Assembly: GCA_903929755.1 (NCBI GenBank)
Contig: CAIYVZ010000007.1
Location: forward strand, 1-64,000
Origin: an uncultured Acidobacteriia bacterium
GTDB lineage: Bacteria; Acidobacteriota; Terriglobia; Bryobacterales; Bryobacteraceae
DNA: 64,000 nucleotides
Reading direction: 5' to 3'
The translations under genes and the position numbers were made by a program. Position 1 is the stretch's first letter. Every line of letters begins with the position of its first letter. Positions 13,929-33,348 of this stretch are shown here, in pieces. The notes below the pieces were generated by a model, which was not told the origin of the DNA, searched no databases, and saw only the letters and a program-made list of their open reading frames with translations.

Positions 13929-13998
13929 TGGTTTGCGCGAAATCGCCCAGCCTCCCGCCGCTTATCCCCGTTTCAGGCCTCCAGGTGTGGCGATTCAA

Positions 13999-14811: not shown

Positions 14812-14818
14812 GAGACCC

Positions 14819-15856
14819 ATGCAACTTCGTTCAGCCATTTGCCTTTCCGCCGCCGCGCTCTTCCTCGCCGGCTGTGCCACCAAAGAGACCGAGCCGCCCT
14901 ACCGCGTCTTTGTCACCAACGAGGGCTCCGGAGACGTCACCGTCATCAATCCGGTCAGCCTGAAAGTGATGGCCACTATTCCCCTCGGCAAACGGCCGCG
15001 CGGCATCCATCTCGGCCCCGGCGGCAGACTGTTCGTCGCGCTCAGTGGTCACCCCAACTCGCCCCCGGGAGTCGATGAATCCACCCTGCTCCCACCGGAC
15101 AAAAGCGCGGATGGAGTGGGCATCTTCGACGTGTTTCAGAACAAGCTCATCCGCACCATTCCGGGAGGTGCGAACCCCGAGCAAGTCGCTCTCAGCAAAG
15201 ACGGCAGTATCGTCTACGTCGCCAATCAGGATGCGGACGGACTCACCCTGCTTGACCTGGTGTCGGGCAAAGATCTCGGCACCGTCCCCACCGGCGAAGA
15301 GCCCGAAGGCATCGCCGCCTCTCCCGATGGCCGCTTCGTCTATGTCACGTCTGAAACCGAAGGTATCGTTACGCAGATCGACACCGCCACCCGCAAAGTC
15401 GGTAAGCAGACGAAAGCCTGCAACCACCCCCGCACCGTGATCGCCATCCCCGACGGCACCCGCATCGCTATCGCTTGCGAGAGCGACGGCAACATCGCCA
15501 TTCTTGACGCGGTCACGCTCGAACCCGTCCAAACCATCCGTGTCGGCAAGCAATACAAGGTGATGGGCATGGCCGTTACGAAAGACGGTTCCACGGTCTA
15601 CGTCACCAGTGGCCGAGCCAAAACTCTGTTTGCGCTCGACCTCAAGACGTACGCCATCCGCGACACCTGGCCCCTCACAGGCACCCGCTCCTGGGGCGTC
15701 GCCCTCTCCCCCGATGAGAAGCTTCTCTTCACCGCCAACGGACCTTCCAACAACGTGACTGTGGTTTCCACCGATACGGGCAAAGTTCTCGCCGACATCA
15801 AGGCAGGAACACTCCCCTGGGGTGTCGCCGTCGTCCCCAATCCCGCAGCGCGTTGA
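14819..15856 (+). CDS. YVTN-family beta-propeller lipoprotein
   Basis: This 345-residue lipoprotein has the signal MQLRSAICLSAAALFLAGC, cleaved before Cys19. The mature protein is built of about seven repeated blades with V-Y-V-x-N/S motifs (VFVTNEGSGDVTVINP, VYVANQDADGLTLLDL, VYVTSETEGIVTQIDT, LFTANGPSNNVTVVST), the YVTN/NHL-like propeller seen in periplasmic proteins next to c-type cytochromes, nitrite reductases and copper proteins. Its own activity is unknown and it may act as a scaffold. GGAG at 14811-14814 precedes the chosen ATG. The downstream ferredoxin ATG lies two bases after the TGA. Confidence 0.85.
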   Translation: MQLRSAICLSAAALFLAGCATKETEPPYRVFVTNEGSGDVTVINPVSLKVMATIPLGKRPRGIHLGPGGRLFVALSGHPNSPPGVDESTLLPPDKSADGVGIFDVFQNKLIRTIPGGANPEQVALSKDGSIVYVANQDADGLTLLDLVSGKDLGTVPTGEEPEGIAASPDGRFVYVTSETEGIVTQIDTATRKVGKQTKACNHPRTVIAIPDGTRIAIACESDGNIAILDAVTLEPVQTIRVGKQYKVMGMAVTKDGSTVYVTSGRAKTLFALDLKTYAIRDTWPLTGTRSWGVALSPDEKLLFTANGPSNNVTVVSTDTGKVLADIKAGTLPWGVAVVPNPAAR

Positions 15857-15858
15857 CG

Positions 15859-16182
15859 ATGTCCGCGCCAGTCCTGAAGCGCCAGCCCATGTCGCACGGT
15901 CGCACGGACCTGCGCCGCAAGCCCCCACGCTTCCTCGCCGTCGTCAACGAGACTTGTACCGGTTGCGCCGGTAGCCCCGTGTGCATCGACTGTTGCCCCG
16001 TGGAAGCCTGTATCTATTGGGTTCCTGATGTCGACTCTTCCCCGTTTGGGCGCGTCGCTATTGACCTCACCACCTGCATCGGCTGCGCGAAGTGCGCCAG
16101 CAAAGGGCCGCACGGAATTCTCCTCGATGGTTGTCCCTGGCGTGCCATCGACATGCTCGAAGCTGCCGCGCTTACGGCTTAG
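15859..16182 (+). CDS. Ferredoxin-like iron-sulfur protein, two-cluster
   Basis: This 107-residue protein carries two cysteine groups. The first, CTGCAGSPVCIDCCPVEAC, is an expanded version of the usual C-x2-C-x2-C-x3-C-P motif. The second is CIGCAKC followed by GCPW. Two [4Fe-4S] clusters are likely, although the second site has an unusual spacing to its fourth Cys. No signal peptide is visible, so it should act in the cytosol. It closes the cupredoxin/propeller operon. Its last 11 bases overlap the 3' end of the convergent octaheme cytochrome gene. An in-frame TTG at 15853 is possible but less likely than this ATG. Its partner enzymes are unknown; the adjacent Rnf/PFOR operon is the obvious candidate context. 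Confidence 0.8.
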   Translation: MSAPVLKRQPMSHGRTDLRRKPPRFLAVVNETCTGCAGSPVCIDCCPVEACIYWVPDVDSSPFGRVAIDLTTCIGCAKCASKGPHGILLDGCPWRAIDMLEAAALTA

Positions 16183-18505
16183 CCGGCATCATCCCCATCA
16201 ACCGCCGCTGTTCCGGCGCATCCATCTGCATCATGTACCGAACCAGTAGTTCCGCATGGTCTTTCGTATAGCCGTCGAATTGAGCCGGAGTCTCGCCGGC
16301 GAACACCCAACGCCCGCCTTCTTTCCGGAATAGCCCCGACGGCATCGCCGTCCCCGGACTCATGTTCTGCGGCTCAGTCATCCAGCGCAAGGTCCACCCG
16401 GGCTGCAGACGTTCAGCAGCCGTCAGGAAATTCGGAGCTGTCGCTGTCTTGTCGTGCCTTGCATCTCCCGTCAAATGGCACTTCAAACAGGGCGCTGCCC
16501 GCGATGAAAACAGAGCCCGGGCCATCTCGCGTTCCCGCTCGTCCAGGGACACAAGTTCCGGAGCCACCCACGTCGCAGGCTGTTTCGAAAGAGCCCCAAA
16601 GAAACGCACCAGAATCCGAACCTCATTCGCCGATAATCCGAACTTCGGCATATGCGCGTCCAGGTAGGGCCGAACCCCGGTATTCGGATCCGCCAGGAAC
16701 TTTGCCAGCCACTCTGGCCGGACCCTCGCTCCCTCTTCCAGCAGCGCCGGAGGCAATTGTTCCTTGCCGTCCGCATCCTGATACCGTGCCTGCGAACTCA
16801 AAGCCGATTTCTGGCCAGGCCGCATTTCATGGCAGCCCATGCAGTTGTACTTCTTTACCACCCACCAGCCATCCTGGATATCCTTCGCGGTACCTTCCGG
16901 CTGAAAGCGATAAGCCTTCGGAATCATCCGGAACGCCCCGTCCGTGGGCACGTCCACACTGCCCAGCAGGAACGTAGTCAACGCGTTCACTTCAGTTGCC
17001 GTCAGAGAAATGTCCGGCATTCTCAGTTTGTCTTCCGCTGCTTTTGCACGACCCTTATCGAACCCGGCAGGCTCGCGCAGCTTGTGCTCCAGAAAGCCCC
17101 TGGTGTTGTACCAGCCTGCGTCCCTGGCAGGCTTCAGCAACAAGCCGAAATCCATCTGTTCCAAAAGTTTGCTGCCCTCGTGCGTCAACTCTGTGCCGAC
17201 ACGCACTGCCTGCTCAAAACCCGCGATTTCATGGCACCCGGCACACCCATAACGAGCCACCAGTTTCTTGCCCGTCGCTGCCAATCGGGCGTCATTGGAG
17301 GCCCCGCTGTCTCGCCCCGCGGGCTGCTCCGGTCCAATCAAATAAGCAGCAATATCCCAGGCCTCCTGCTGAGTCAGTCGGAGACTCGGCATGGAGGCCT
17401 GGCGACGCACCGCACTGGGGTTCAGCACCCACCTCGCCACCCAGGCCGCTGTTGTCTTCTCTCCTAATCGCGACAGATTCGGAGCAAAATCGGCCCCCAT
17501 CCTTGCCGCGCCTTCCCCTATCGAATGGCAAGCCAAACAGCCCCGCGTCCCGAACAGTTCCTTGCCGTTTGCAGAGTCCCCAGAGCCAGCCGAAGGCGAG
17601 GAAAGTGCAGCCTCATCAGCAGCCTGCCAAATGAACGCTGTAATCGAGCGCACCTCATCCTCACTCAACCGAAACTTCGGCATCCGGGTCCCCGCGCGAT
17701 ACCCCTGCGGATCCCGCAGCCATCCGGGGATCCACTCTCTTTTGAGCTGCCCCCGAACCTGTTTCAAACTCGGACCTGTCTCCCGCGCATCGAGTTCCAG
17801 TTCCGTGGCCCGACGCGTCAAATCCTCCATCCATCCGTTGCGCGCACTCATCCCCACCCGCAACGTCTCCGCCCGCGCATAGTGCCGCCGGGCCTCCTCA
17901 TCGCTCCCGGCGCCATCGCCCCCCTGGATCTCGCGCTCCATCGCCACCCTGTCCCGTTCCTGTTGCGCCCCCAGCCGCTTTGCCTCCAGCCGGACCGCCT
18001 TCAGACCATCCGCCTCCCGGTCATATTGCTCATGCCGGTGGCACCCCGCGCAGCCCTTCTGCTGATACAGATCGCGCCCCAGATTCAGAGTCTCGGCGGA
18101 CTCCAAAACCCGGTCTCGCTCATGGCACTGGACGCAGCCCGCTTCCACATTCTGCTTGCCATAAAGCGGCCACGCCCAGCCCCGATCCAGGCCGTGCGCC
18201 TTCGCGACAGTAGTTGTCGCTACCCCATTGCCGTTATGGCAAAGCGAGCAACCAAATCGCGCCGGAGCATGCAGCTGCATCAGCTTCGGGTTCGGGTGTT
18301 CCTTTAGATGACAGGACGAGCAGCGGTCCACGATCTGCGCCTCCGCCACATAGATCTGCCGGATTCCACGCGGCAGGTTCTTGTGCTTCGCGAAGTCATC
18401 CCCTATCGCCCAGCCAAGCGCCGCCACCATCAGCAGCGAGCACACCAGCAGGGGTCCGCTCAGGGACCTGCTGGTAACCGGGTCGCCATTTGGGGGGCCG
18501 TTCAT
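16172..18505 (-). CDS. Membrane-anchored octaheme c-type cytochrome
   Basis: This 777-residue protein has one N-terminal membrane segment (PLLVCSLLMVAALGWAIG) and eight CxxCH haem-binding motifs in the periplasmic part: CSSCH, CSLCH, CVQCH, CAGCH, CLACH, a second CAGCH, CMGCH and CLKCH. Several lie in cytochrome-c-like modules ending in M-P-x-F/L (GTRMPKFRLSEDEV, MPSLRLT, MPKFGLSANEV), which would supply axial Met ligands. It is the last gene of the 13-gene electron-transfer operon and overlaps the cytochrome b C-terminal gene by ATGA. In this position it probably replaces cytochrome c1 or f as electron acceptor of a Rieske/cytochrome b complex, as in 'alternative' bc complexes of several phyla. 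Redox partners beyond it are unknown. Confidence 0.88.
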   Translation of the reverse strand: MNGPPNGDPVTSRSLSGPLLVCSLLMVAALGWAIGDDFAKHKNLPRGIRQIYVAEAQIVDRCSSCHLKEHPNPKLMQLHAPARFGCSLCHNGNGVATTTVAKAHGLDRGWAWPLYGKQNVEAGCVQCHERDRVLESAETLNLGRDLYQQKGCAGCHRHEQYDREADGLKAVRLEAKRLGAQQERDRVAMEREIQGGDGAGSDEEARRHYARAETLRVGMSARNGWMEDLTRRATELELDARETGPSLKQVRGQLKREWIPGWLRDPQGYRAGTRMPKFRLSEDEVRSITAFIWQAADEAALSSPSAGSGDSANGKELFGTRGCLACHSIGEGAARMGADFAPNLSRLGEKTTAAWVARWVLNPSAVRRQASMPSLRLTQQEAWDIAAYLIGPEQPAGRDSGASNDARLAATGKKLVARYGCAGCHEIAGFEQAVRVGTELTHEGSKLLEQMDFGLLLKPARDAGWYNTRGFLEHKLREPAGFDKGRAKAAEDKLRMPDISLTATEVNALTTFLLGSVDVPTDGAFRMIPKAYRFQPEGTAKDIQDGWWVVKKYNCMGCHEMRPGQKSALSSQARYQDADGKEQLPPALLEEGARVRPEWLAKFLADPNTGVRPYLDAHMPKFGLSANEVRILVRFFGALSKQPATWVAPELVSLDEREREMARALFSSRAAPCLKCHLTGDARHDKTATAPNFLTAAERLQPGWTLRWMTEPQNMSPGTAMPSGLFRKEGGRWVFAGETPAQFDGYTKDHAELLVRYMMQMDAPEQRRLMGMMPAKP

Positions 18506-19437
18506 AGATTGAACCAGGGCGTAATCCAGACGTACTTGATCCGAAAGGCGAGTCGCAGCAAAATCTTGACCGGCACCCCCACCAGCAGCGTGATCGCAAA
18601 GAACTGAAACGTCAGATACTGCAGGGAAGTGGTCCGAGCATAGATACGCCGGTCGAGCTCCGTCCGCGTCACCAGCTTGTGAATCGCCCAGCCCGCACTC
18701 GCATAGAACAGAACCACCGTCACCAGGCCGACAAGAGCCTCACCGGCAGCCCCGTGTATGCCCAGCATCTCCGGCAAATTCCGCGTCTTTTCAAACACCA
18801 CGCGTGTGTGATCCCACGTCTCACCAGGCCAAAACCACATCCACCCCGGACCCCGAATAAACGTTCCCACAAAAATCGCTGCCAGCCAAATCGAAAACCC
18901 GGCCCCAAACGAAACCAGCACCACCTTCCGCTGCCGAATTGTGTAATACCCGGTGCCCAAAGGGCTGGCATCCAGATATGGAAACAACATCAGCCCCGCC
19001 AAAATCAGCAACGGCAACACCACCCCCGCAAACCACGGATCAAAGTAAACCAGTAATTCCTGCAGCCCCACAAAGTACCAGGGCGCCTTCGCCGGATTCA
19101 TCGTCTGGTTCGGGTTCGCCGGTTCCTCCAGCGGTGCGTTCAGAGCCAGCGACCAAACCAGCAGCAGCACCGTGACAATCATCGCCGCCAGAAACTCAAT
19201 CTTCAGCAGATGCGGCCACACTTGTACTTCACGCTCCCAGCCTTCTTCGTAAGGCTGAGTCTTGCGATGATGCGTCTTTGCCAACTCCGGTTCCGCCGCG
19301 AGCCGTACGGCCAGACGATCCATCTCCCGCCCCTGCCGCAGCCCATACCAAACGAAGAACCCGACACCCGCCAGCAGGCCCACAATGGGAACGTTATCCG
19401 CCGCCGAAAGAATCTCCCAAATCTGGCTGAAGTCCAT
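18502..19437 (-). CDS. Cytochrome b, C-terminal subunit (PetD-like)
   Basis: This 311-residue membrane protein contains the hallmark of the cytochrome b C-terminal domain/subunit IV: PWYFVGLQELLVYFDPWFAG, where the P-W/E-W-Y/F loop lines the quinol-oxidation site (here APWYF, as in PetD-type proteins with a divergent PEWY). It has an extra N-terminal membrane helix and a charged cytosolic segment before the core, and extra C-terminal helices, making it longer than the usual 160 residues of PetD. It pairs with the N-terminal subunit encoded three bases upstream and the octaheme cytochrome downstream (4-base overlap). Together they should form a quinol-oxidising complex in the inner membrane. 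Confidence 0.9.
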   Translation of the reverse strand: MDFSQIWEILSAADNVPIVGLLAGVGFFVWYGLRQGREMDRLAVRLAAEPELAKTHHRKTQPYEEGWEREVQVWPHLLKIEFLAAMIVTVLLLVWSLALNAPLEEPANPNQTMNPAKAPWYFVGLQELLVYFDPWFAGVVLPLLILAGLMLFPYLDASPLGTGYYTIRQRKVVLVSFGAGFSIWLAAIFVGTFIRGPGWMWFWPGETWDHTRVVFEKTRNLPEMLGIHGAAGEALVGLVTVVLFYASAGWAIHKLVTRTELDRRIYARTTSLQYLTFQFFAITLLVGVPVKILLRLAFRIKYVWITPWFNL

Positions 19438-19440
19438 GCT

Positions 19441-20286
19441 CTAACGGACCTCGTCTTTCATCTCGCCATCCAGCACCAGTGGCGCAGGACCAGAAATCCC
19501 GCCGTCCTTGCGAACCCTCCAGAAATGCACCCCCATCAGCAGTAAAACAACCAGAGGTATCCCGATGCAATGCCACACGTAAGCGCGCAGCAGTGCATTG
19601 CTGTCCACCACAGACCCGCCCAGCAAACCGAAGCGCAAATCGTTAAAGGGCGTCATGCCTAACTGCGGTCCGAACGGCCCTTCATGCCCCACCAGGGGCG
19701 TGGCACGCGCCATATTGGTCCCCACCGTAACGGCCCAGAATCCAAGCTGGTCGTCCGGCAGCAGATACCCGGTGAACGAGAGCAGCAGCGTGAGCACCAG
19801 CAGCGCCACACCCACGCACCAGTTGAATTCGCGAGGCTTCTTGTAAGCGCCCGTCAGCACCACGCGCAGCATGTGCAGCCACACCGTAATTACCATCAGG
19901 TGCGCCCCCCACCGGTGCATATTCCGCAGCAACCGCCCGAACGGGACATCCTGCTCCAGATACAAAATATCCCGGTAAGCCTGCACCTTGGTGGGGTGGT
20001 AGTAAAACATCAGCAGAGCTCCGGTGAACAGCAGGACCAGAAACAAATACGCGGAGATCCCGCCCATGCCCCACGTGTAGCTGTAGCGCACCGCATCGCG
20101 ATTCACACGCCCCGGATGCAGATGCAGAAACACATTCGAGACCACCGCCAGCGCCCGCGTTCTGGTGTCGTTCCGGGTATGCTTTACGCGGAAAATTGAC
20201 TTCCAAAGCTGTGTCCTTTGAGGCGCCCGCAGCCCCGCCTTTACCTCTTCAATCGCCTGCTTCGGACTTTTCGGTTCGGGTTCCAT
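19441..20286 (-). CDS. Cytochrome b, N-terminal di-haem subunit (b6-like)
   Basis: This 281-residue protein has four membrane helices. Haem-ligand His pairs are visible. In helix B, a His in MHRWGAH and one in WLHMLRV are separated by 13 residues. In helix D, VWHCIGIP and GVHFWRV give His residues separated by 14. The 13/14 spacing is the pattern of cytochrome b6 rather than mitochondrial-type b (13/13). The gene is followed by a separate PetD-like gene, the split b6f-type layout, but the partner cytochrome is an octaheme protein, not f. It lies two bases from the Rieske gene upstream. It should carry quinol electrons across the membrane to a second quinone site. Confidence 0.93.
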   Translation of the reverse strand: MEPEPKSPKQAIEEVKAGLRAPQRTQLWKSIFRVKHTRNDTRTRALAVVSNVFLHLHPGRVNRDAVRYSYTWGMGGISAYLFLVLLFTGALLMFYYHPTKVQAYRDILYLEQDVPFGRLLRNMHRWGAHLMVITVWLHMLRVVLTGAYKKPREFNWCVGVALLVLTLLLSFTGYLLPDDQLGFWAVTVGTNMARATPLVGHEGPFGPQLGMTPFNDLRFGLLGGSVVDSNALLRAYVWHCIGIPLVVLLLMGVHFWRVRKDGGISGPAPLVLDGEMKDEVR

Positions 20287-20288
20287 AG

Positions 20289-20747
20289 CTACAACGCGAG
20301 GAACGAATCCCGCGCCCCGGCTTGCAGCAAACGGCTGGTATCCACCACAACCTCGCCGTCTGCATCCAGTTCGAGGTGCACGCGATCCATGGGGCGCGGG
20401 GCCGGTCCCTCAAAGTTCCGTCCCTCCGCATCAAACCCGCTGCCATGGCAAGGACACTTGAACTTGTTCTCACCCTCCAGCCAGTTCGGCGTGCATCCCA
20501 GATGCGTGCACTTCGCATGGATTGCAAACAGGTTGCGCTGCGTCCGCACCACCCAAATACGATGGGATTGCTTGAACCTCTCATCCACACCTGGCGCAAA
20601 AGCCGTGGGAGGCCCGATGCGAAACCGCGTCTCCGGCTCAAATAAAACGCGTGGAAAGAAGAAGCGGGCAGTCATCACCGCGCCTGCGCCAAGAAAGGCC
20701 GTCAGCGCCGCCCAGACCGTCCGCCTCCTGCTGAATCTTTCACCCAC
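20289..20747 (-). CDS. Rieske [2Fe-2S] protein
   Basis: This 152-residue protein has an N-terminal Arg-rich leader and one membrane anchor (about residues 11-30), then a Rieske fold with both cluster motifs CTHLGC and CPCHGSGF, which supply two Cys and two His ligands. It takes the first electron from quinol at the bc-type complex and hands it to the c-type cytochrome. The leader MGERFSRRRTVWAALTAFLG has consecutive Arg residues compatible with Tat export, as usual for Rieske proteins. It lies between the FNR gene (4-base gap) and the cytochrome b gene (2-base gap). Confidence 0.93.
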   Translation of the reverse strand: MGERFSRRRTVWAALTAFLGAGAVMTARFFFPRVLFEPETRFRIGPPTAFAPGVDERFKQSHRIWVVRTQRNLFAIHAKCTHLGCTPNWLEGENKFKCPCHGSGFDAEGRNFEGPAPRPMDRVHLELDADGEVVVDTSRLLQAGARDSFLAL

Positions 20748-20751
20748 TTCG

Positions 20752-21612
20752 CTACTCGTACAGCAGTTCCGCGTACCGGCCCTGGCTCACAAGTTCGTCC
20801 TGTAGTTTCTGCCATTCGGCTTCGGAACCGGCAGCTTGCGCCATCGCCTTGTTGAACTTCTCCGCAACCTCCTTTAGCCCCGCCACATAAACGTAGGTTT
20901 GTGGGTCCTGTACCATGTCCCAGATCTCGTTCTGGTTATCGGCGAAGATACGCTCCATGTCGGGCTGTGGCTGCGTGGATGGCCGCGGACTCAGCGCTTC
21001 AAACGCCTTGAAAGTACCTTCCGCATAGTACAGCGAAAAGTCCTTATTCACATCGTTCATGTAGAGCAGTTCCAGGCCCGTTCGCGCGCCATAGAACAAA
21101 CGAACATCGCCCTTCCAGCCGCCCCGTTCCGTATAAATATGCTGGATGAAAGCGCGGAAGGGAGCAATGCCTGTACCCACCCCGATCATCAGCAAATTAC
21201 TGGTGTCGTCGGCCGGAATGGTGAACCGCGCCCCATAAGGCCCTGCTATCTGAACCGGATCTCCCGGCTCCGTATCGCAAAGGTAATTCGAAGCCAGCCC
21301 CGGATATCTCTCGCCCGTAATGTCATCGATGTAGAAGCACCGCCGCACGCAAAGCGAGAACGTTCCCAGGTGACCCTTCTCCCCATTCCGCGGACTGGCG
21401 ATCGAGTAGAGCCGCAAATGTCGCGGATTCCCGAACTCCATCGGACCATGCAGAATGACGGCGATACTCTGGCCTTCCAGGTAATCCAGCCGTTCGCCGG
21501 AAACCTCGAACACAATGTGGCGAACGTCGGCGTCGCCTTTTGGCGTGATGCGCTGATTCGAAACCACCGTCGCTACCTGCCAGTTACTCAGGTCATACTC
21601 ATTCAGATTCAT
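20752..21612 (-). CDS. Ferredoxin-NADP+ reductase, plant type
   Basis: This 286-residue flavoprotein has the FAD-binding R-L-Y-S-I-A-S signature (RHLRLYSIAS), a second FAD segment FSLCVRR, the pyridine-nucleotide motif GVGTGIAPFRAF, YVAGLKEV, and the C-terminal Tyr close to the end (YAELLYE). This pattern is that of plant/cyanobacterial ferredoxin-NADP+ reductases. It would exchange electrons between reduced ferredoxin and NADP(H) in the cytosol. It lacks a membrane anchor or phycobilisome domain. Its place between the Rnf genes and the Rieske gene, with 4-base overlap to the small Cys-rich protein gene, suggests that the ferredoxin pool filled by PFOR can be drained to NADPH as well as through Rnf. 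An NADPH-to-quinone or cytochrome role is also possible. Confidence 0.9.
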   Translation of the reverse strand: MNLNEYDLSNWQVATVVSNQRITPKGDADVRHIVFEVSGERLDYLEGQSIAVILHGPMEFGNPRHLRLYSIASPRNGEKGHLGTFSLCVRRCFYIDDITGERYPGLASNYLCDTEPGDPVQIAGPYGARFTIPADDTSNLLMIGVGTGIAPFRAFIQHIYTERGGWKGDVRLFYGARTGLELLYMNDVNKDFSLYYAEGTFKAFEALSPRPSTQPQPDMERIFADNQNEIWDMVQDPQTYVYVAGLKEVAEKFNKAMAQAAGSEAEWQKLQDELVSQGRYAELLYE

Positions 21613-21839
21613 GACTTTGCTCCATTCCCGGGGTTCAACCCGGCATGTTTCATGCGATTCTGGCAGCTCTGGCTGCGTTCACATCCCCCGCAGCTGTGTG
21701 CCATGTAGTCGAGCACATCGTGGTCCGCGCTACACCCGGACCCTTTACGAACAAACGCCTGGAAGACTATCCAAAGGCCCAGCACCAGAAAGATTCCGGC
21801 CGATACCGTTGCCAGTTGAATCAGCGCATCCAGCATCAT
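21609..21839 (-). CDS. Small Cys-rich membrane protein in the Rnf/bc operon
   Basis: This 76-residue protein has one N-terminal hydrophobic helix (residues about 5-30, ATVSAGIFLVLGLWIVFQAF). A short soluble tail has four or five Cys: GSGC, then HSCGGC about 15 residues later, then SQSC. The gene overlaps FNR upstream and rnfA by four bases each (ATGA-type), so it belongs to the operon and is surely translated. I do not recognise the family. The layout of one helix plus a Cys-rich tail resembles NqrM, the small maturation factor that supplies Fe to the Cys cage of NqrD/E (homologues of RnfA/E), but the Cys spacing is different. A metal-delivery or assembly role for RnfA/E is therefore an inference only. 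Confidence 0.75.
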   Translation of the reverse strand: MMLDALIQLATVSAGIFLVLGLWIVFQAFVRKGSGCSADHDVLDYMAHSCGGCERSQSCQNRMKHAGLNPGNGAKS

Positions 21840-22420
21840 GACGCGTTCCCCATTCCGGCAAAGCCCATGAAAGCCATGGAAAGAATTGCCGCCAGAATCA
21901 GCGTCAGTGCCGTGCCCCTGGCCAGCGTCACTACGTCGGATAACTCAATCCGTTCACGAACCAGTGACAGCAGCACCAGCGCCGCGCAGTATCCGCCGCT
22001 CGCCGCGATGGAGAACACCGTGCTCTGCACCAGCGTGTAACCGCGCGAGGTCTGGAACAGCGGTACCGCCAGCACCGCACAGTTCGTCGTGATCAGCGGA
22101 AGATAGACTCCCAGTTCCCGAAACAGCGCCGGACTGTTCTTCTTAATGAACATCTCGGTCAGTTGCACCGTCGCCGCAATAATCACGATGAAGATGATGA
22201 TCCGCAGATACTCCGCGTGATACTTGACCAGGAGCAGATTCGTAAACCACGACAGCACCGAACTCACCGTGATCACAAACATCACCGACACGCCCATGCG
22301 CCAGGCTGTGGAGAACTTACCCGACAACCCCAGGAAAGAGCACATGCCTAAGAACGTGCACAGCACGAAGTTATTAATCAGAAACGAGTCGAGAAAAATA
22401 TGTGTCAGCGATTCGTTCAT
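21836..22420 (-). CDS. rnfA: Rnf complex subunit RnfA
   Basis: This 194-residue, six-helix membrane protein is of the RnfA/NqrE type. The conserved INNFVLCTFLGMCSFLG near the N-terminus and YLPLITTNCAVL in the fourth helix each carry a Cys of the intramembrane Fe-S cage shared with RnfE. It forms half of the antiparallel RnfA/RnfE core through which electrons cross the membrane during ion translocation. The ATG at 22420 is chosen because it gives the family N-terminus and overlaps the end of rnfE by four bases; the frame is open another 38 codons upstream into rnfE. Confidence 0.95.
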   Translation of the reverse strand: MNESLTHIFLDSFLINNFVLCTFLGMCSFLGLSGKFSTAWRMGVSVMFVITVSSVLSWFTNLLLVKYHAEYLRIIIFIVIIAATVQLTEMFIKKNSPALFRELGVYLPLITTNCAVLAVPLFQTSRGYTLVQSTVFSIAASGGYCAALVLLSLVRERIELSDVVTLARGTALTLILAAILSMAFMGFAGMGNAS

Positions 22421-23067
22421 TGCGTGGCCTCCGCCGCCGCGAGTTTCGCCGCACGCTCTTTGCGCCACGCAAAGAACAGCAGCCACATCGCCAGTGAGAT
22501 AAAGCCACCCGGAGGCAGCAGAAACAGCACCCACGGCTCAAAGCGCGAGCCAAATACGGGGAAACCCAGGAACGTACCGGCTCCAAGAACCTCGCGGACC
22601 ATCCCCAAACAAGTCAGTGCCAACGCAAAGCCAAGCCCCATGCCGAGCCCATCCAGCATCGATTTCACTACGGGCTGCTTGCCCGCGTAAGCCTCCGCGC
22701 GCTCCAGCGTCAGGCAGTTCGAAACAATCAGCGGGATGTAAGCGCCCAGCGCCTGATACACCGGAATGCTGATCGCCTTTACCAGAAAATCCACCACCGT
22801 CACGCCGCACGCGATGATCGCAATGAACGTCGCGATGCGGACCTGTTTCGGGATCAGTTTGCGAATGGCCGAGATCATGCCGTAAGACGCCACCATCACG
22901 AACGTAGTAGCCAGGCCCATCGAAATCGCATTCTTTACACTGTTCGTAATCGCCAGGGTCGGGCACATCCCCAGCACCATCACGAACACCGGGTTCTGCT
23001 TCCACAGGCCGTTCAGGAAGGGATGGGTGTCCGCCGTAATCGTCACCGGCTGTTTGTCCCTCAGCAT
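22417..23067 (-). CDS. rnfE: Rnf complex subunit RnfE
   Basis: This 216-residue, six-helix membrane protein is homologous to RnfE/NqrD. The first Cys of the Fe cage lies in VLGMCPTLAITNSVKNAISMG (about residue 34) and the second in AYIPLIVSNCLTLERAEAY (about residue 118). The end, LGFPVFGSRFEPWVLFLLPPG, is also characteristic. It pairs with RnfA in the membrane core of the Rnf ion pump. It shares a base with the rnfG stop codon and overlaps rnfA by four bases, which suggests strict stoichiometric translation. Confidence 0.95.
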   Translation of the reverse strand: MLRDKQPVTITADTHPFLNGLWKQNPVFVMVLGMCPTLAITNSVKNAISMGLATTFVMVASYGMISAIRKLIPKQVRIATFIAIIACGVTVVDFLVKAISIPVYQALGAYIPLIVSNCLTLERAEAYAGKQPVVKSMLDGLGMGLGFALALTCLGMVREVLGAGTFLGFPVFGSRFEPWVLFLLPPGGFISLAMWLLFFAWRKERAAKLAAAEATQ

Positions 23068-23783
23068 TAGTTGCCTCGCTCGATTCGGTCCAGGTTTTTC
23101 AGGATCACCGGAGTCACATCCTCCACGCTTTTGTGCAGCATCCGGCCCACGGCCCGGGAAGAGATCGTCGCACCGGAAATCGCATCAATTTCCCAGGCGT
23201 TCTTTTTGGTCCCGTGCTTCACCGTTGTAATGTTGTGGACTTCCTTGCCGTTCTCAACCTTCGCGTCCAGGTTCTTGAAATTGGCAAGGAACGGAATATC
23301 GCTCTTGATGCGGTCGCCAAGACCCGGGGTCTCCCGCATATCCACAACCTTGAAACCGATAATCGTCTGGGTCGCCGGCGAGTACGAATACAGCGCAGAG
23401 ATCACATCGGCATAGCCACGTTCTCCCGCCTCAATTACCACGCCGACCAGCTTGCCCGAGCCATCGTAACCGGCAAAGAACTTCTTGCCCTCGCCCGTCG
23501 CGCCAGTCAGCACTTTCAGCTCGCCCGAAGGCTCCACACCGTAAGTCACCTGCTTGCTGATACCCGGCAGCAGTTCCGCCACCGACTCCCGCGTGATCGT
23601 CTCCTGATTGCTCTGAATCCGGTCTTTGGTGGCCAGATTCGTCACCACAATCAGCAGCCCGCACATCAGCGAAACCGTGCCCAGCAAACGAACCATGCGA
23701 ATACTGTTTGCGGCGGAGGGCGCGTGTGGAGACGCCGCACCAGGTCCAGTCCCGCCAGGGCCAGGAATAATTTGGCTGCTCAT
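23067..23783 (-). CDS. rnfG: Rnf complex subunit RnfG (covalent FMN)
   Basis: This 238-residue protein has an unusually Gly/Pro/Ala-rich cytosolic leader of about 25 residues and then one membrane anchor (MVRLLGTVSLMCGLLIVVTN). The periplasmic FMN-binding domain shows GLGDRI and ISGATISSRAV, in which the Thr of SGAT is the covalent FMN attachment site. It carries electrons on the outer face of the Rnf complex. The flavin is added by ApbE, whose gene is divergent at 32305. It overlaps rnfD and rnfE by one base each. Confidence 0.95.
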   Translation of the reverse strand: MSSQIIPGPGGTGPGAASPHAPSAANSIRMVRLLGTVSLMCGLLIVVTNLATKDRIQSNQETITRESVAELLPGISKQVTYGVEPSGELKVLTGATGEGKKFFAGYDGSGKLVGVVIEAGERGYADVISALYSYSPATQTIIGFKVVDMRETPGLGDRIKSDIPFLANFKNLDAKVENGKEVHNITTVKHGTKKNAWEIDAISGATISSRAVGRMLHKSVEDVTPVILKNLDRIERGN

Positions 23784-24832
23784 TACGCCACCGCCTTGCG
23801 CCGCTCGCCATAGGTCTTCGGCTGCGTCAGATTATCGATCAGCGGCGAGAGCGCGTTGCCCAGCAGAATCGCGTACATTACACCTTCGGCAAGCCCGCCC
23901 AGGAAGCGGATCGCTACCGTGAGTGTGCCCATCAGAATCCCGTAAATCCACATGCCGCGGGGCGTTACCGGTTGGCCGACGGGATCGGTCGCCATGAACA
24001 TCGCACCCAGCATCAGGCCTCCGGAAAAGAGCACAAACAGAGGTCCCGGGTACCGCGCCGCATCCGCCATGTGGAACGCCTGCGCCAGCACCACCGAACT
24101 GAGCAGCATCGCTGCCGGAACACGCCAGCTCATCATGCCGCGAATGATCAGATACAACCCGCAAAGCAGGATCAGCCAGGGCGCCGTTTCACCGGCAGAC
24201 CCCGCCCGTTCGCCCAGGAACATGGACCACGGCTCCGTCGTCACATGGTCGAACTTTTGCAGCATCAGCGGCGTCGCCCCTGTGAAGCCGTCCACCTTCG
24301 TCCGTGCGACCCACTCCGTTATCGGGGCGGCCTTCATAAACGGCCACGCCAGGGTGGATGGGACAAACTCAGTGAACCGTCCCACCGCCTTCGCAGACGT
24401 GTAGGTTGTGATTGCCACCGGAAATGCTGCCTGCAAAAACGCCCGCCCCACCAGCGCCGGATTGAACACGTTGAAACCCAGGCCGCCGAACACCATCTTG
24501 CCGGGGCCCACCGCGATAAACGCTCCCAGCGCACCCATCCACAAGGGCAAGCCCGGAGGCAGCGTCAGGCCCAGCAGCAAGCCCGTAATCACGGCCGAGA
24601 AATCGCCAATCGTCGAGCCCTTTCCGCTTGCCCGGCAGAACATCTGTTCTGTCCCTAACGCCGCCGCCGTAGTCGCCAGCAGCAACGCCAGTGTCGATAT
24701 GCCGAACAACCAAATCGCATACCCGCAAATCGGCAGCAGCGCGAATACCACGTTCGCCATGATCTTTTCCACGGACCGCGTGGAGTGCGCGTGCGGTGAA
24801 GTCCGAACCGCAAGAACCGTTGTGGCCGTCAT
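23783..24832 (-). CDS. rnfD: Rnf complex subunit RnfD (covalent FMN)
   Basis: This 349-residue membrane protein with eight to ten helices matches RnfD/NqrB. It has SPHAHSTRSVEKIMANVVFA at the start, MVFGGLGFNVFNPALVGRAF, and the covalent-flavin site FTGATPLML, whose Thr should carry FMN by phosphoester. A final MATDPVGQPVTPRG also matches. The ATG at 24832 gives the family N-terminus and overlaps the rnfC end by four bases; a longer frame to 24928 lies inside rnfC and is rejected. It forms part of the ion-translocating membrane core. Confidence 0.95.
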   Translation of the reverse strand: MTATTVLAVRTSPHAHSTRSVEKIMANVVFALLPICGYAIWLFGISTLALLLATTAAALGTEQMFCRASGKGSTIGDFSAVITGLLLGLTLPPGLPLWMGALGAFIAVGPGKMVFGGLGFNVFNPALVGRAFLQAAFPVAITTYTSAKAVGRFTEFVPSTLAWPFMKAAPITEWVARTKVDGFTGATPLMLQKFDHVTTEPWSMFLGERAGSAGETAPWLILLCGLYLIIRGMMSWRVPAAMLLSSVVLAQAFHMADAARYPGPLFVLFSGGLMLGAMFMATDPVGQPVTPRGMWIYGILMGTLTVAIRFLGGLAEGVMYAILLGNALSPLIDNLTQPKTYGERRKAVA

Positions 24833-26163
24833 GCGCGTGCCTTCCTCTCCCGGTTCATTTGTTTGGCCACCCGGAAGTACTGCACCAGCGGAATATTCGA
24901 CGGGCAGACGTAACTGCAGCACCCGCATTCAAAGCAGTCCATCAGGTGGAAGTCGGTCTCCATCTCTTCGTACCGGTCCTTACGTGCCAGCAGGCCGAGC
25001 CTTGAAGGATTCAGCTGCATCGGGCACGCTTCCACACAAGCGGCGCATTTAATGCAGGGATGCATCCGCCCGGTCTCGTCCTGCGTCAGCACCAGAATGC
25101 CAGTCACGCCCTTCGTGACCGGAACGTCGAGAGACCCGGTCGCCACGCCCATCATGGGCCCGCCCAGAATGACTTGCGACACATGGCTGGTACACCCGGC
25201 CTGAGCCAGAGCCCAGCGTAGCGGCGTCCCCAGAGCAACGAGATAATTCCCCGGCTTGGTTACGCCCGGGCCCGCAATCGTGACCACACGTTCAATCAGC
25301 CCGCGCCTGCTCGGCAGCAGATCGCCAATCTGCGCCAGCGTCGCCACATTGAATACCGCCAGACCCACTTCTGAAGGCAGGCCCGCCGACGGAATCTCAC
25401 GATTCAGCAGCACCTTTACCAGCATCTTTTCGGCACCCTGCGGATACTTCGTTGGCACCGCTTCAATGGTGATATCGGTCGCCGAGCCGTTGGCTTTCTT
25501 CAGCGCCGCCACCGCGTCCATCTTGTTGTCTTCCACGCCGACCACGGCACGCTCAGCGCCCAGAGCCCGCATGGCCACGCGCGCGCCATGCAGCACCTCG
25601 CCCGGTTGCTCCACCATTACGCGATGGTCCGCAGTCAGGTACGGTTCACACTCGCAGCCATTTACCACCACGGTATCGATCTTGCGGCCCGCCGGAACCT
25701 TCAGCTTCACGTGCGTGGGAAACGCCGCTCCACCCAGGCCAACCACGCCCGTCTCCTGCACGGCGAGCACAATTTCGTCCGGTGTCATCTTGTCGATGTC
25801 CTGGGGCGCGCCGTACAGCACTTCCTGGCTGGCGCTCTCATACGGAGTGATGTAGATCGCCTCCGTCAGTTCGCCCTTCGCGCTCGGAGCCAGGGCGATC
25901 CTTTGTACACGCCCCGTTGCCGGAGCATGCATCGGCACCGACACAAAACCGCCCGCTTTCGCGATCGGCTCTCCGCGCACAATCTCCTGGCCTTCCCGCA
26001 CCAGCGGCACTGCGGGAGCACCATTGTGTTGCGACAGCGGAACTACCAGCAGGGGAGGGAAGGGCATGCGCCGGATCGCCAGATGAGCCGTCTCATCTTT
26101 GTGCTCCGGCACATGCAGGCCCCGCCAGAGGCGCTTACCCGTAATTGCTTCCAGTAAGGGCAT
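24829..26163 (-). CDS. rnfC: Rnf complex subunit RnfC
   Basis: This 444-residue protein contains the complex-I 51-kDa-like NADH/FMN domain, with GLGGAAFPTHVKL and NGCECEPYLTADHR (typical RnfC), a SLBB domain around residues 260-330, and two ferredoxin motifs: CIKCAACVEACP and CFECGCCSYVCPSNIPLVQYF. It is the NAD(H)-facing subunit of the Rnf complex in the cytosol. It starts 10 bases after nifJ and runs into rnfD with a 4-base overlap. It lacks the long C-terminal Ala/Lys extension seen in many proteobacterial RnfC proteins. Confidence 0.95.
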   Translation of the reverse strand: MPLLEAITGKRLWRGLHVPEHKDETAHLAIRRMPFPPLLVVPLSQHNGAPAVPLVREGQEIVRGEPIAKAGGFVSVPMHAPATGRVQRIALAPSAKGELTEAIYITPYESASQEVLYGAPQDIDKMTPDEIVLAVQETGVVGLGGAAFPTHVKLKVPAGRKIDTVVVNGCECEPYLTADHRVMVEQPGEVLHGARVAMRALGAERAVVGVEDNKMDAVAALKKANGSATDITIEAVPTKYPQGAEKMLVKVLLNREIPSAGLPSEVGLAVFNVATLAQIGDLLPSRRGLIERVVTIAGPGVTKPGNYLVALGTPLRWALAQAGCTSHVSQVILGGPMMGVATGSLDVPVTKGVTGILVLTQDETGRMHPCIKCAACVEACPMQLNPSRLGLLARKDRYEEMETDFHLMDCFECGCCSYVCPSNIPLVQYFRVAKQMNRERKARA

Positions 26164-26173
26164 TCGCGGGCTC

Positions 26174-31201
<5,028 letters not shown>

Positions 31202-31208
31202 CTTCAGT

Positions 31209-32117
31209 TCACCTGGGCCCTTCTTGTGTTTGCAATACCGGCAAGTCCGCCAGTGCAACCGGCAGAGGTGATTTGCGCGTGATCTTCTTCGCTTCCACGC
31301 CCTTCACCGTGCCTTGCTTCGCGTCGAGCCAAACGATAGCGCCGGTCGGGCATCGTTCAATCGGCATCCGCGTCGCCAAACTGTTCTTCGCGTAATTCAC
31401 TACCGCAAGATTGTTCACTATCTCGACCAGCCCTGCCGGAGCATCCGCTGCGCAGCGTCCGCAAGCCGTACACGCCACTTCGCACTCGGCCTCCGCCGTG
31501 TCGCCGTGCAACAGGCTCCGGCAGGCCACCCATAACCGATGACTCACCACGTGCAGCGAGAACAAACCTTTGGGGCAAACCTCAACGCAATCGCCGCACG
31601 CCGTGCACAGGGCTTCATTCACCACCGGAAGGCCGTGGGCATCCATCCGGATCGCGTTGAACTCGCAGACGCGTTCGCAATCCGCCAGCCCCAGGCAACC
31701 CCAGCTACAGCCCTTGCCGCCACCGTTTACCAGCGCGGCGGCACGGCAGGAGGGCAAACCCTGATACTGCGCTTTTTGCCGCGCCACATGTGCGCCACCT
31801 GCGCAAGCTAACCTGGCGACGCGCTTTTCGTCGCCTCCCGCCGCTACCTTGAGGAGTGCCGCCACCGCGGCCACGCCCTCAGCGCTATTCACTGTGCACT
31901 TGCCCGGGGCGATCTCGCCCTTCACCGCTTTCTCGGCAAACGCATGGCATCCCGCACACCCGCAGGCGCCGCAATTGGCCAACGGGAGCAAAGCCTCTAC
32001 CTGGTCAATTCGCGGGTCTTCCCATACATAAAGCTTCTTGTCCGCGATCGCCAGCACAACCGCCAGAATCACCCCGATGCCACCCATCAGGATGGCCGCG
32101 ACCAATAAATCACTCAT
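31209..32117 (-). CDS. rnfB: Rnf complex subunit RnfB
   Basis: This 302-residue protein has a hydrophobic N-terminal anchor (residues 3-25) and then the [4Fe-4S] domain CGACGCAGCHAFAE with a fourth Cys in GKCTVN. Further ferredoxin motifs are CSWGCLGLADCERVC, CTACGDCVEVCPKGL and CTACGRC with a later RCPTGAI. This is the long form of RnfB, with several clusters that accept electrons from reduced ferredoxin at the cytosolic face. The leader AAGAGG is seven to twelve bases before the ATG. It is the first gene of the 13-gene operon, and nifJ starts seven bases after its stop. Separation of rnfB from rnfCDGEA by the PFOR gene is unusual. Confidence 0.94.
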   Translation of the reverse strand: MSDLLVAAILMGGIGVILAVVLAIADKKLYVWEDPRIDQVEALLPLANCGACGCAGCHAFAEKAVKGEIAPGKCTVNSAEGVAAVAALLKVAAGGDEKRVARLACAGGAHVARQKAQYQGLPSCRAAALVNGGGKGCSWGCLGLADCERVCEFNAIRMDAHGLPVVNEALCTACGDCVEVCPKGLFSLHVVSHRLWVACRSLLHGDTAEAECEVACTACGRCAADAPAGLVEIVNNLAVVNYAKNSLATRMPIERCPTGAIVWLDAKQGTVKGVEAKKITRKSPLPVALADLPVLQTQEGPR

Positions 32118-32223
32118 TGCGCCTCTTCCCCCCGATTCCCAGTCGGCAGTGCGGGAAATAGCGCACGCTGCGCAAGTTGCCGCATTGCCTCTTCGCAGCC
32201 CCGGGTTCTAAATCCGCAAAATG

Positions 32224-32239
32224 GTTGCATGTTTGCAAC
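32224..32239. promoter_or_regulatory. Perfect inverted repeat between rnfB and apbE (candidate operator)
   Basis: GTTGCA-TGTT-TGCAAC is a 6-base perfect inverted repeat with a 4-base loop, in the only divergent intergenic space of the Rnf operon (32118-32304). It lies about 107 bases upstream of rnfB and about 65 bases upstream of apbE, a sensible place for a shared regulator. The repeat is short enough to occur by chance, and no clear -35/-10 pair was found next to it. Confidence 0.35.
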
Positions 32240-32304
32240 GTCTCAGGTAGTGCCGAACCCCCTCATGTGCAATCGGCGTACCGTTCTGGCCAGTGGCATT
32301 TCAC

Positions 32305-33348
32305 ATGCAGTTCAGGTGGACCGTGAAGCATCTCTGGGTACGAACGCTGCTCGCGCTGCTCCTCGTGGGTGGCCTGCTGGCATACCATCTGTCCGGCCCA
32401 TCCCCCACGCGCCTGTTCCGCGAACAGCGGTCCTTAATGGGGACAGCCTGGAGCCTGGAAGTCCCCCTCAACGGCCATTCGGAAGACGAAGCCCGGCGAG
32501 CTGTCACCGCAGCTTATCGCGAACTCGACCGCATCGAGGCCCTCATGAGCGAATGGCGGCCCGAGTCGCCGATCTCCCTGGTGGATGCCGCCGCTGGTCA
32601 CAACCCTGTTGAAGTCCCCGAGGAACTCCGCGCCCTCCTCGAACGCAGCATGGACTACAGCCGCAAGACCGAAGGCACGTTCGACATCACTTGGCGAGGC
32701 ATGGGTCGGATCTGGCACTTTGACGACACCTTCCGCGTCCCCAACCACGCCGAGGTCGCTCAAGCCCGCCGCACGATCGACTACCGGCGCATTCATATCG
32801 ACGGCAACAATATCTATCTCCCGAAAGGCACCAACATCGGCCTGGGCGGTATCGCCAAGGGTTACGCGATAGACCGCGCCGCCGCCGTCCTGAAGAAGGC
32901 CGGCTTTCCCGATTCCCTGGTAGATGGAGGCGGCGACATTCTGGCCTCCGGCACCCGCTACGGTCACCCCTGGCAGATTGGCGTACAGGACCCGCGCGCC
33001 GAAAGAGGCAAACTCCTCGGAGTGGTGGAAATCTCCAACGCCGCTCTTGTCAGCTCCGGAGACTACGAGCGATTTCGTCTAGTCAACGGAGTTCGATACC
33101 ACCACCTCATCGATCCCCGCACCGGCTGGCCCGCCACCGCCGCCATGGCCTCCACCGTGCTTGCCCCCACTGCGGAACAAGGCGTCGTCCTCGGCAAGGC
33201 TATTTTCATCCTGGGCCCGGAAAAAGGTCTGGCGCTCGCCAAAGCTGAGGGCCTGGAAGCCCTGGTGATCGACCGAGCCCAAAAGCAACACGCCACCCAG
33301 GGCTTCAGGAAAATCTTCCGCGCCGCCGATGCAGAACTGATTCGCTGA
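32305..33348 (+). CDS. apbE: FAD:protein FMN transferase ApbE
   Basis: This 347-residue protein has an N-terminal membrane anchor or lipoprotein-less signal (LWVRTLLALLLVGGLLAYHL). The ApbE fold shows MGTAWSLEV, the GLGGIAKGYAIDRA loop, LVDGGGDILASG, VSSGDYERF and HHLIDPRTGWPA, which carry the Mg2+ and FAD ligands. It attaches FMN to Thr of RnfG and RnfD in the periplasm. It is transcribed divergently from the Rnf operon that encodes both targets, so the functional link is strong. A GTG at 32293 is an alternative start four codons upstream. Neither start has a strong ribosome site. Confidence 0.93.
   Translation: MQFRWTVKHLWVRTLLALLLVGGLLAYHLSGPSPTRLFREQRSLMGTAWSLEVPLNGHSEDEARRAVTAAYRELDRIEALMSEWRPESPISLVDAAAGHNPVEVPEELRALLERSMDYSRKTEGTFDITWRGMGRIWHFDDTFRVPNHAEVAQARRTIDYRRIHIDGNNIYLPKGTNIGLGGIAKGYAIDRAAAVLKKAGFPDSLVDGGGDILASGTRYGHPWQIGVQDPRAERGKLLGVVEISNAALVSSGDYERFRLVNGVRYHHLIDPRTGWPATAAMASTVLAPTAEQGVVLGKAIFILGPEKGLALAKAEGLEALVIDRAQKQHATQGFRKIFRAADAELIR

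What the first reader, a model, noticed from the sequence alone, without database searches (positions are those of the whole stretch)
16172..32117. One 13-gene operon joins PFOR, a full Rnf pump, FNR and a b6-type quinol complex with octaheme cytochrome
Gaps and overlaps between the thirteen minus-strand genes are all between a 29-base-free 4-base overlap and a 10-base gap, so they are one transcript by sequence. Known roles: PFOR makes reduced ferredoxin, Rnf moves ferredoxin electrons to NAD+ and pumps ions, FNR moves them to NADP+, and the cytochrome b/Rieske set oxidises quinol. Packing these into one operon suggests a single respiratory strategy in which pyruvate oxidation feeds ferredoxin, both pyridine nucleotides and the quinone/cytochrome chain. 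I do not know a described operon with this full order, and this deserves a search. Inference: the whole set may be regulated as a low-oxygen energy module.
Basis: partly seen in the sequence, partly recalled or inferred. Interest (0 to 1): 0.85.

Follow-up and report, generated by a model that had tools for sequence, protein, structure and literature searches.

The report
Widespread PFOR–Rnf operon joined to cytochrome operon
A soil bacterium carries one continuous run of 13 genes that is really two operons placed end to end: a widely shared set that looks built for burning pyruvate while pumping ions, and an ordinary quinol-oxidising cytochrome complex; the join was seen only here and in one close relative.

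Summary
Observation confirmed: thirteen minus-strand genes fill 16172-32117, all twelve junctions lie between a 4-base overlap and a 10-base gap, and the gene calls hold. The run is a composite of two separately conserved operons. (1) RnfB, a giant PFOR, RnfCDGEA, a small Cys-rich membrane protein and a plant-type FNR: in 80 loci from 11 named phyla, RnfC follows this PFOR in 72 of 72 that reach far enough and FNR is present in 47 of 55. (2) Rieske, b6-like, subunit IV and octaheme c, standalone in 7 of 7 fetched relatives. The two are joined only in this genome and G151: 1 of the 80 loci, 1 of 5 relatives whose contig runs at least 2.5 kb past FNR. Low-oxygen control has no sequence support. 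The most interesting part is the core with its unnamed small protein (50 of 57 loci), built like the NQR maturation factor NqrM but not shown homologous. Ten paper searches found no description of this core. That it is an RNF-to-NQR intermediate was tested and not supported.

The parts
32293..33348 (+). ApbE-type FAD:protein FMN transferase, divergent; expected to flavinylate RnfG/RnfD
   Evidence: PF02424 E 1.6e-75; divergent ApbE present in 6 of 6 same-genus loci (L078-L083), not found in the fetched stretch of G192 (L085)
31209..32117 (-). RnfB, ferredoxin-facing Fe-S subunit
   Evidence: PRK07118-type RnfB models E 4.6e-64 (below curated cut-off); TIGR01944 66.2 bits vs cut-off 68.7
26174..31201 (-). 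giant PFOR (1675 aa from ATG 31201): POR_N, PFOR_II, POR, split double 4Fe-4S domain, TPP domain, fused C-terminal ferredoxin domain
   Evidence: C-terminal ferredoxin cysteines invariant in 12 PFORs of several phyla
24829..26163 (-). RnfC (NADH side)
   Evidence: TIGR01945 491.9 bits, over cut-off
23783..24832 (-). RnfD (start taken at ATG 24832)
   Evidence: TIGR01946 290.1 bits, over cut-off
23067..23783 (-). RnfG (FMN-binding)
   Evidence: PF04205; TIGR01947 93.9 bits vs cut-off 102
22417..23067 (-). RnfE
   Evidence: TIGR01948 224.2 bits, over cut-off
21836..22420 (-). RnfA (start taken at ATG 22420)
   Evidence: TIGR01943 222.2 bits vs cut-off 229.3
21609..21839 (-). 76-aa protein: one hydrophobic helix plus Cys motif; conserved partner of the core, NqrM-like in build
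   Evidence: no Pfam/NCBIfam hit; family just after RnfA in 50 of 57 loci; W23, Q27, C50, C53, C59 invariant in 21 sequences
20752..21612 (-). plant/cyanobacterial-type ferredoxin-NADP reductase
   Evidence: best solved relatives are PetH/FNR, E 9.4e-46; PetH model E 6e-58, below cut-off; RLY(S) and GTGIAPFRA in an alignment of 51
20289..20747 (-). Rieske 2Fe-2S protein, CTHLGC...CPCH present
   Evidence: PF00355; motif
19441..20286 (-). cytochrome b6-like subunit; His pairs with 13 and 14 residues between; no Cys at the haem ci position
   Evidence: best PDB match cytochrome b6 E 9.5e-39; G73 invariant in 10 sequences where the aligned b6 has C (that this Cys binds haem ci is recalled); NF040969 ExtP 261.7 bits vs cut-off 290
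18502..19437 (-). subunit-IV/petD-like cytochrome b C-terminal half, motif KAPWY where PEWY is usual (recalled)
   Evidence: PF00032; motif
16172..18505 (-). octaheme cytochrome c, 8 CXXCH, N-terminal hydrophobic stretch
   Evidence: 8 CXXCH in all 9 proteins of this type counted (window, L078, L247-L253)
15853..16182 (+). convergent 2x[4Fe-4S] ferredoxin; travels with the cytochrome operon
   Evidence: Fer4_7; near the standalone cytochrome operon in 4 of 7 loci (L247, L248, L249, L253)

Best explanation
Two operons fused end to end. Core operon (ApbE | RnfB-PFOR-RnfCDGEA-small protein-FNR): the PFOR oxidises pyruvate (or another 2-oxoacid) with CoA and passes low-potential electrons, probably through its own fused ferredoxin domain or free ferredoxin, to RnfB; Rnf passes them to NAD+ and exports Na+ or H+; the plant-type FNR diverts part to NADP+. 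Net effect: an ion-pumping alternative to pyruvate dehydrogenase with adjustable NADH/NADPH output. The small Cys-rich membrane protein probably helps place the iron-sulphur cluster between RnfA and RnfE, as NqrM does for NQR. Second operon (Rieske-b6-IV-octaheme c): a quinol:cytochrome c oxidoreductase common in the order, whose octaheme subunit takes electrons onward in the periplasm. In the ancestor of this genome and G151 the cytochrome operon came to lie directly behind FNR and so probably under the core promoter. Shown: gene content, order, conservation, standalone occurrence of each half. Inferred: co-transcription, electron path, direction, maturation role.
For: Core order kept in 8 of 8 relatives with strong RnfC as far as their contigs reach. 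In the best 80 loci of a genome-wide PFOR scan: RnfC follows PFOR in 72 of 72 with at least 500 nt after PFOR (8 of 80 shorter, not counted); RnfC, D, E and A in 53 of 55 and FNR in 47 of 55 with at least 6.5 kb (25 shorter, not counted); RnfB just upstream in 57 of 80 and after PFOR in 13 of 80; 11 named phyla. Cytochrome b/Rieske genes in 1 of 80, L092, the same contig as L078. Rieske-b-IV-octaheme without Rnf in 7 of 7 fetched loci L247-L253, with the same ferredoxin near in 4. PFOR aligns to solved PFORs. No nifH over cut-off in the 97.9% complete genome, so no sign of nitrogenase as electron sink.
Against: PFOR scores 418 bits against a curated cut-off of 911 for pyruvate:ferredoxin oxidoreductase, so the substrate is unproven. 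In the wider PFOR family of the phylum (27-51% identity pieces), Rnf lay near PFOR in only 1 of 15 genomes examined, some on short contigs. FNR is missing in 8 of 55 long loci. The small protein is not recognised by the NqrM model (1 of 21 at E 0.0028) and profile comparison gave 58% probability over 15 columns. No expression data. The genome also has a 2-oxoacid dehydrogenase E1 (below PDH cut-offs) and an oxoglutarate dehydrogenase, so PFOR need not be the main route; Rnf could run in reverse.
Confidence: 0.72

Rival explanations
1. Reverse mode: the cell uses ion-motive force through Rnf (and NADPH through FNR) to make reduced ferredoxin, and PFOR works as pyruvate synthase fixing CO2 onto acetyl-CoA.
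For: Rnf is reversible (review PMC12174285, passages; abstract in listing); PFOR reversibility is recalled; a separate 2-oxoacid dehydrogenase E1 is present.
Against: No nifH over cut-off, and other ferredoxin sinks were not searched for; FNR and RnfC give outlets to NADP+ and NAD+; direction cannot be read from sequence.
Confidence: 0.2
2. The whole 13-gene run is one co-evolved respiratory module: quinol complex, Rnf and FNR form a working unit, perhaps with FNR docking on the b6-type complex as reported for chloroplasts (recalled).
For: 4-base FNR/Rieske gap here and an overlap in G151 if Rieske starts at its first matching ATG; within the 19 genomes of the genus searched, a strong octaheme hit (E below 1e-100) occurs in 6 of 7 with strong RnfC and 0 of 12 without; FNR is plant-type.
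Against: Outside the genus the link vanishes: neither Rnf carrier (G184, G192) has a strong octaheme hit, and 21 of 40 non-carriers have one; the cytochrome operon is on another contig in G158, G155, G157, G161; FNR stays with Rnf where no cytochrome operon follows. The genus counts are not corrected for shared descent.
Confidence: 0.12
3. Low-oxygen energy module under an oxygen sensor.
For: PFOR and other Fe-S enzymes are often oxygen-sensitive (recalled).
Against: No Fnr/CRP-like box within 2 mismatches in 32118-32292 (consensus recalled); other regulators were not searched for.
Confidence: 0.1
4. The core is a surviving RNF-to-NQR intermediate: RnfCDGEA + FNR-family reductase + NqrM-like protein is colinear with nqrABCDEF + nqrM.
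For: Gene order; published model of NQR from a duplicated rnf operon that lost rnfB and gained a reductase (PMC4014512, abstract and passages).
Against: In a 118-row tree NqrE lies outside all RnfA (94/72, not a starred branch) and not inside the PFOR-linked clade (98/93); the RnfE/NqrD half is unresolved. FNR is PetH-like rather than NqrF-like.
Confidence: 0.05

Closest known systems
Rnf complex (RnfABCDGE), e.g. rnfBCDGEA of Chlorobi/Bacteroidetes (PMC4014512 passages)
   Same: All six subunits; order C-D-G-E-A as in those operons; ApbE nearby
   Different: PFOR lies between RnfB and RnfC (or first), and a small Cys-rich membrane protein and a plant-type FNR follow RnfA
Pyruvate:ferredoxin oxidoreductase, single-chain type (6cin, 1b0p)
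   Same: Domain order and the aligned thiamine and core motifs
   Different: 1675 aa against 1171-1232; about 127 residues between the two domain-V cluster motifs; fused C-terminal ferredoxin domain; below the curated PFOR score
Plant-type FNR (PetH)
   Same: Best solved relatives; RLY(S) and GTGIAPFRA motifs
   Different: Tied to Rnf in organisms not known for photosynthesis (recalled)
Cytochrome b6f and other split Rieske-cytochrome b complexes; ExtPQ of selenite/tellurite operons
   Same: Split b (b6 + IV), Rieske, 13/14 His spacing
   Different: No haem ci cysteine, KAPWY motif, octaheme c where b6f has cytochrome f (recalled)
NqrM (DUF539)
   Same: Single helix plus Cys cluster, encoded beside the pump genes
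   Different: Window protein not matched by the NqrM model; homology not shown

Membership tests
Rnf complex | All six subunits RnfA, B, C, D, G, E encoded together | tested here: met
   C, D, E over curated TIGRFAM cut-offs, A, B, G slightly below
Rnf complex | Ferredoxin:NAD+ activity with ion transport | not testable with these tools
   Needs membranes and assays
PFOR | PFOR domains with thiamine site and Fe-S cluster motifs | tested here: met
   Cys sets invariant in 12 sequences
PFOR | Curated equivalog score for pyruvate:ferredoxin oxidoreductase (TIGR02176) | tested here: not met
   418.2 bits against 911.35; so PFOR-like, substrate open
Plant-type FNR | FAD and NAD(P) domains with plant-type motifs | tested here: met
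Plant-type FNR | Curated score for cyanobacterial PetH (NF045929) | tested here: not met
   196.5 bits against 600
Cytochrome b6f | Haem ci cysteine in b6 | tested here: not met
   Gly in all 10 aligned, Cys in the aligned b6
Cytochrome b6f | Cytochrome f as the c-type subunit | tested here: not met
   The fourth gene is an octaheme c with no cytochrome f model among its hits
Rieske/cytochrome b complexes in general | Rieske + four-His cytochrome b + subunit IV + c-type cytochrome | tested here: met
NqrM | Match to PF04400 | tested here: not met
   No hit for the window protein; 1 of 21 family members at E 0.0028
NqrM | Single helix plus Cys cluster beside the pump operon | tested here: met
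   (helix judged by eye from the sequence)
NQR ancestor | NQR branches with this Rnf clade | tested here: inconclusive
   RnfA/NqrE half against, RnfE/NqrD half unresolved

The most novel reading that the evidence does not exclude
The core encodes a previously unrecognised, physically coupled pyruvate:NAD(P)+ ion pump: the giant PFOR feeds Rnf directly through its fused ferredoxin domain, FNR branches the flow to NADP+, and the small Cys-rich membrane protein is a dedicated Rnf maturation factor; it is used in many phyla, including aerobic-living bacteria, as an energy-saving alternative to pyruvate dehydrogenase.
Probability: 0.35. Interest if true: 0.78.

Novelty: new variant of a known kind. 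Interest (0 to 1): 0.52.

Why it matters
If the core works as proposed, bacteria of many phyla conserve energy at the pyruvate step by pumping ions, a saving usually linked to anaerobes, and use a plant-type FNR to balance NADH and NADPH. It also hands the Rnf field a candidate assembly factor that can be tested by deletion in culturable marine Bacteroidota. The fused 13-gene run itself is a good example of operon growth by joining, but a local one.

Tried and rejected
Rejected: a widespread 13-gene operon (cytochrome genes in 1 of 80 other loci). Not found: conserved genes downstream of the core in other phyla (among 89 downstream genes, none of the 12 largest clusters was printed as reaching three loci; only L092 had a multihaem protein). 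Unsupported: RNF-to-NQR intermediate, NqrM homology, Fnr-type control, nitrogenase as sink. Led nowhere: promoter/terminator scan. The ten paper searches listed no paper that I could recognise as describing a PFOR-Rnf-FNR operon; only open-licence PMC papers are held, I opened four of those listed, and synonyms were not exhausted.

The small-protein model was built from 21 sequences, the window's and 20 from these loci; 29 of the 50 in-place hits were not in the model. For the tree I chose 36 of the 80 loci plus the window and L286, 6 other Rnf loci and 14 NQR loci, and kept proteins of 170-280 aa; L241, L242 and L285 (NQR loci with only one gene found) and L288 were left out. The 24 genomes searched for NqrF were picked by me from the 80 loci. 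The 16 stretches from other genomes were picked by PFOR score.
Full report
What is there. The window (G000:C7; genome of 6.9 Mb in 212 contigs, 97.9% complete) has thirteen minus-strand genes from 32117 down to 16172. Pfam and NCBIfam name the genes as RnfB, PFOR, RnfC, RnfD, RnfG, RnfE, RnfA, an unnamed 76-aa protein, a ferredoxin-NADP reductase, Rieske, cytochrome b N-terminal part, cytochrome b C-terminal part and a multihaem cytochrome with eight CXXCH. All twelve junctions are between a 4-base overlap and a 10-base gap once the likely starts are used. ApbE is divergent at 32293 and a two-cluster ferredoxin is convergent at 15853.

Relatives. RnfC was searched in 61 genomes, own included. 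A strong hit (E below 1e-100) occurs in 7 of 19 of the genus (own included), 1 of 18 others of the family, 1 of 20 others of the order and 0 of 4 others of the class: patchy. In the eight relatives the core order RnfB-PFOR-RnfCDGEA-FNR is kept as far as the contigs reach: FNR is seen in 7, the eighth (G158) ends inside RnfA; in G184 the contig begins inside PFOR. Divergent ApbE is seen in the six same-genus loci, not in the fetched stretch of G192. Of the five whose contig runs 2.5 kb or more past FNR (L078, L080, L082, L083, L085) only L078 (G151) has Rieske, b, IV and octaheme genes behind it.

Beyond the phylum. Mapping the window proteins on them: RnfC follows PFOR within 1.5 kb in 72 of 72 loci with at least 500 nt after PFOR; RnfC, D, E and A are present in 53 of 55 and FNR in 47 of 55 with at least 6.5 kb; RnfB lies just upstream in 57 and after PFOR in 13 of 80; a cytochrome b or Rieske gene in 1 of 80. 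Taxon names give 11 phyla with 3 loci unassigned: Pseudomonadota 22, Bacteroidota 16, Acidobacteriota 14, Hydrogenedentota 9, Planctomycetota 5, Myxococcota 3, Verrucomicrobiota 2, Calditrichota 2, Kiritimatiellota 2, Binatota 1, Spirochaetota 1. Two orders occur, with RnfB first or last. Gemmatirosa (plasmid-collection record) has PFOR beside Rnf too. Against: in the wider PFOR family of the phylum (a match in 125 of 149 genomes), 16 stretches from 15 genomes were examined and only G033 had Rnf beside PFOR; some of these contigs are short.

The small protein. Between RnfA and FNR many loci keep a reading frame of about 60-80 aa with one hydrophobic stretch and a Cys cluster, often C-x2-C-x-C-x3-C. 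A profile from 21 of them finds a member just after RnfA in 50 of the 57 loci that have RnfA and 400 nt behind it, at E 1e-5 or better, 29 of them not in the model; 6 have nothing at E 10 (L103, L106, L133, L149, L154, L155) and 1 only a weak hit (L137). Elsewhere among 20,236 frames (the window's included) the only separate hit at E 0.01 or better lies upstream of RnfB in L105; two further fragments belong to the L094 frame that holds the in-place member. G192 has it too (E 4e-19) and G033 perhaps (E 0.084); in the other Rnf and NQR loci scanned in that call only two weak matches in one Phocaeicola locus appeared at E 0.5 or better. NqrM, the small membrane protein needed to put the intramembrane 2Fe-2S cluster into NQR (review PMC12174285, passages), has the same build, but the NqrM model finds one of 21 at E 0.0028, nothing in the window's genome, and profile comparison aligned 15 columns at 58%. 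Same job is my inference; same family is not shown.

The PFOR. It aligns to solved PFORs (6cin E 2e-88), with YPITPS and the following Glu and Arg visible in that alignment; it also carries SNTGGQ, whose match in solved PFORs and the catalytic roles are recalled. It scores below the curated PFOR cut-off. About 127 residues separate the two cluster motifs of domain V, and a C-terminal ferredoxin domain (1dax E 1e-4) has its four Cys invariant in all 12 compared, from several phyla. The genome holds one such PFOR, an E1 alpha-beta 2-oxoacid dehydrogenase below PDH cut-offs and an oxoglutarate dehydrogenase; no nifH over cut-off.

The FNR is of the plant type (PetH and chloroplast FNRs are the best solved matches, E 9e-46) and an alignment of 51 from these loci keeps RLY(S) and GTGIAPFRA. 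In the core it is usually the last gene, or the last before RnfB.

The cytochrome operon. The octaheme protein was searched in the same number of relatives, 61 genomes. Strong homologues (E below 1e-100) occur in 6 of 19 of the genus, 2 of 18 others of the family, 18 of 20 others of the order and 1 of 4 others of the class. In seven fetched loci (L247-L253) the block Rieske-b-IV-octaheme stands without Rnf, with eight CXXCH in each octaheme protein; the convergent ferredoxin is near in four and relatives of the 13933-14811 protein in seven. The window genome has no second close copy (next cytochrome b 47%). So a standing operon became joined behind FNR. The b subunit is closest to cytochrome b6 but has Gly where b6 has the Cys recalled as the haem ci ligand, in all ten aligned, and the subunit-IV motif is KAPWY. 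In the genus the octaheme protein goes with Rnf (6 of 7 against 0 of 12), outside it does not (0 of 2 against 21 of 40); counts, shared descent not corrected for.

NQR. 17 of 24 carriers that I picked from the loci also have a NqrF over cut-off, so NQR and this Rnf coexist. In a tree of 118 RnfA/NqrE and RnfE/NqrD rows (bootstrap not fully settled) the RnfA of the core, 38 rows, is a clade (98/93) that includes both Rnf copies of L114, one of them without PFOR, and excludes Gemmatirosa and G033; NqrE is outside all RnfA (94/72). The RnfE half is unresolved. The missing-link reading is not supported, nor finally excluded.

Literature. Seen: passages of PMC12174285, abstract, outline and passages of PMC4014512, passages of PMC8238504 and PMC3534657; the rest only as search listings. 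In what I saw none describes PFOR in the rnf operon with FNR; the main text of PMC8238504, a survey of flavinylation clusters, has no occurrence of 'pyruvate'; PMC3534657 describes an rnfCDGEAB operon with two extra genes, a lipoprotein and an unknown. Searches.

Verdict. The sequence observation is right; the unifying story is half right. The real unit is the PFOR-Rnf-FNR-small protein core, widespread and apparently undescribed in what I could search; the quinol complex is a recent neighbour seen in two genomes.

Noticed in passing
L114 394-4821 and 9081-20237: A Calditrichales contig carries two Rnf sets in tandem, only the second with PFOR, RnfB and FNR hits.
   Followed up: partly
L286 (Gemmatirosa kalamazoonensis plasmid 1): RnfB-PFOR-RnfC-D-G-ApbE-E-A: ApbE inside the cluster; no FNR or small-protein hit in the fetched stretch.
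   Followed up: partly
L045 3159-13367: Another Acidobacteriota genome (G033) has RnfB-PFOR-RnfCDGEA with an ordinary-length PFOR and a further gene matching the PFOR C-terminal part beside RnfB.
   Followed up: partly
L031 13776-18731: A 51% identical giant PFOR (G104) with no Rnf hit in the 20 kb fetched, 1.3 kb of it downstream.
   Followed up: no
L043 12337-18857: A PFOR relative lies next to Rieske/cytochrome b genes in a distant Acidobacteriota genome (G010).
   Followed up: no
window 14735-15856: Beta-propeller protein (TIGR03866, below cut-off) between the ferredoxin and a carboxypeptidase-regulatory-domain protein; kept in G151.
   Followed up: no
window 34121-36255: GMC oxidoreductase followed by a gluconate 2-dehydrogenase subunit-3-like protein.
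   Followed up: no
L202 8819-12027 (G000:C24): A second Rieske-cytochrome b set with a cytochrome of seven CXXCH in the same genome.
   Followed up: partly
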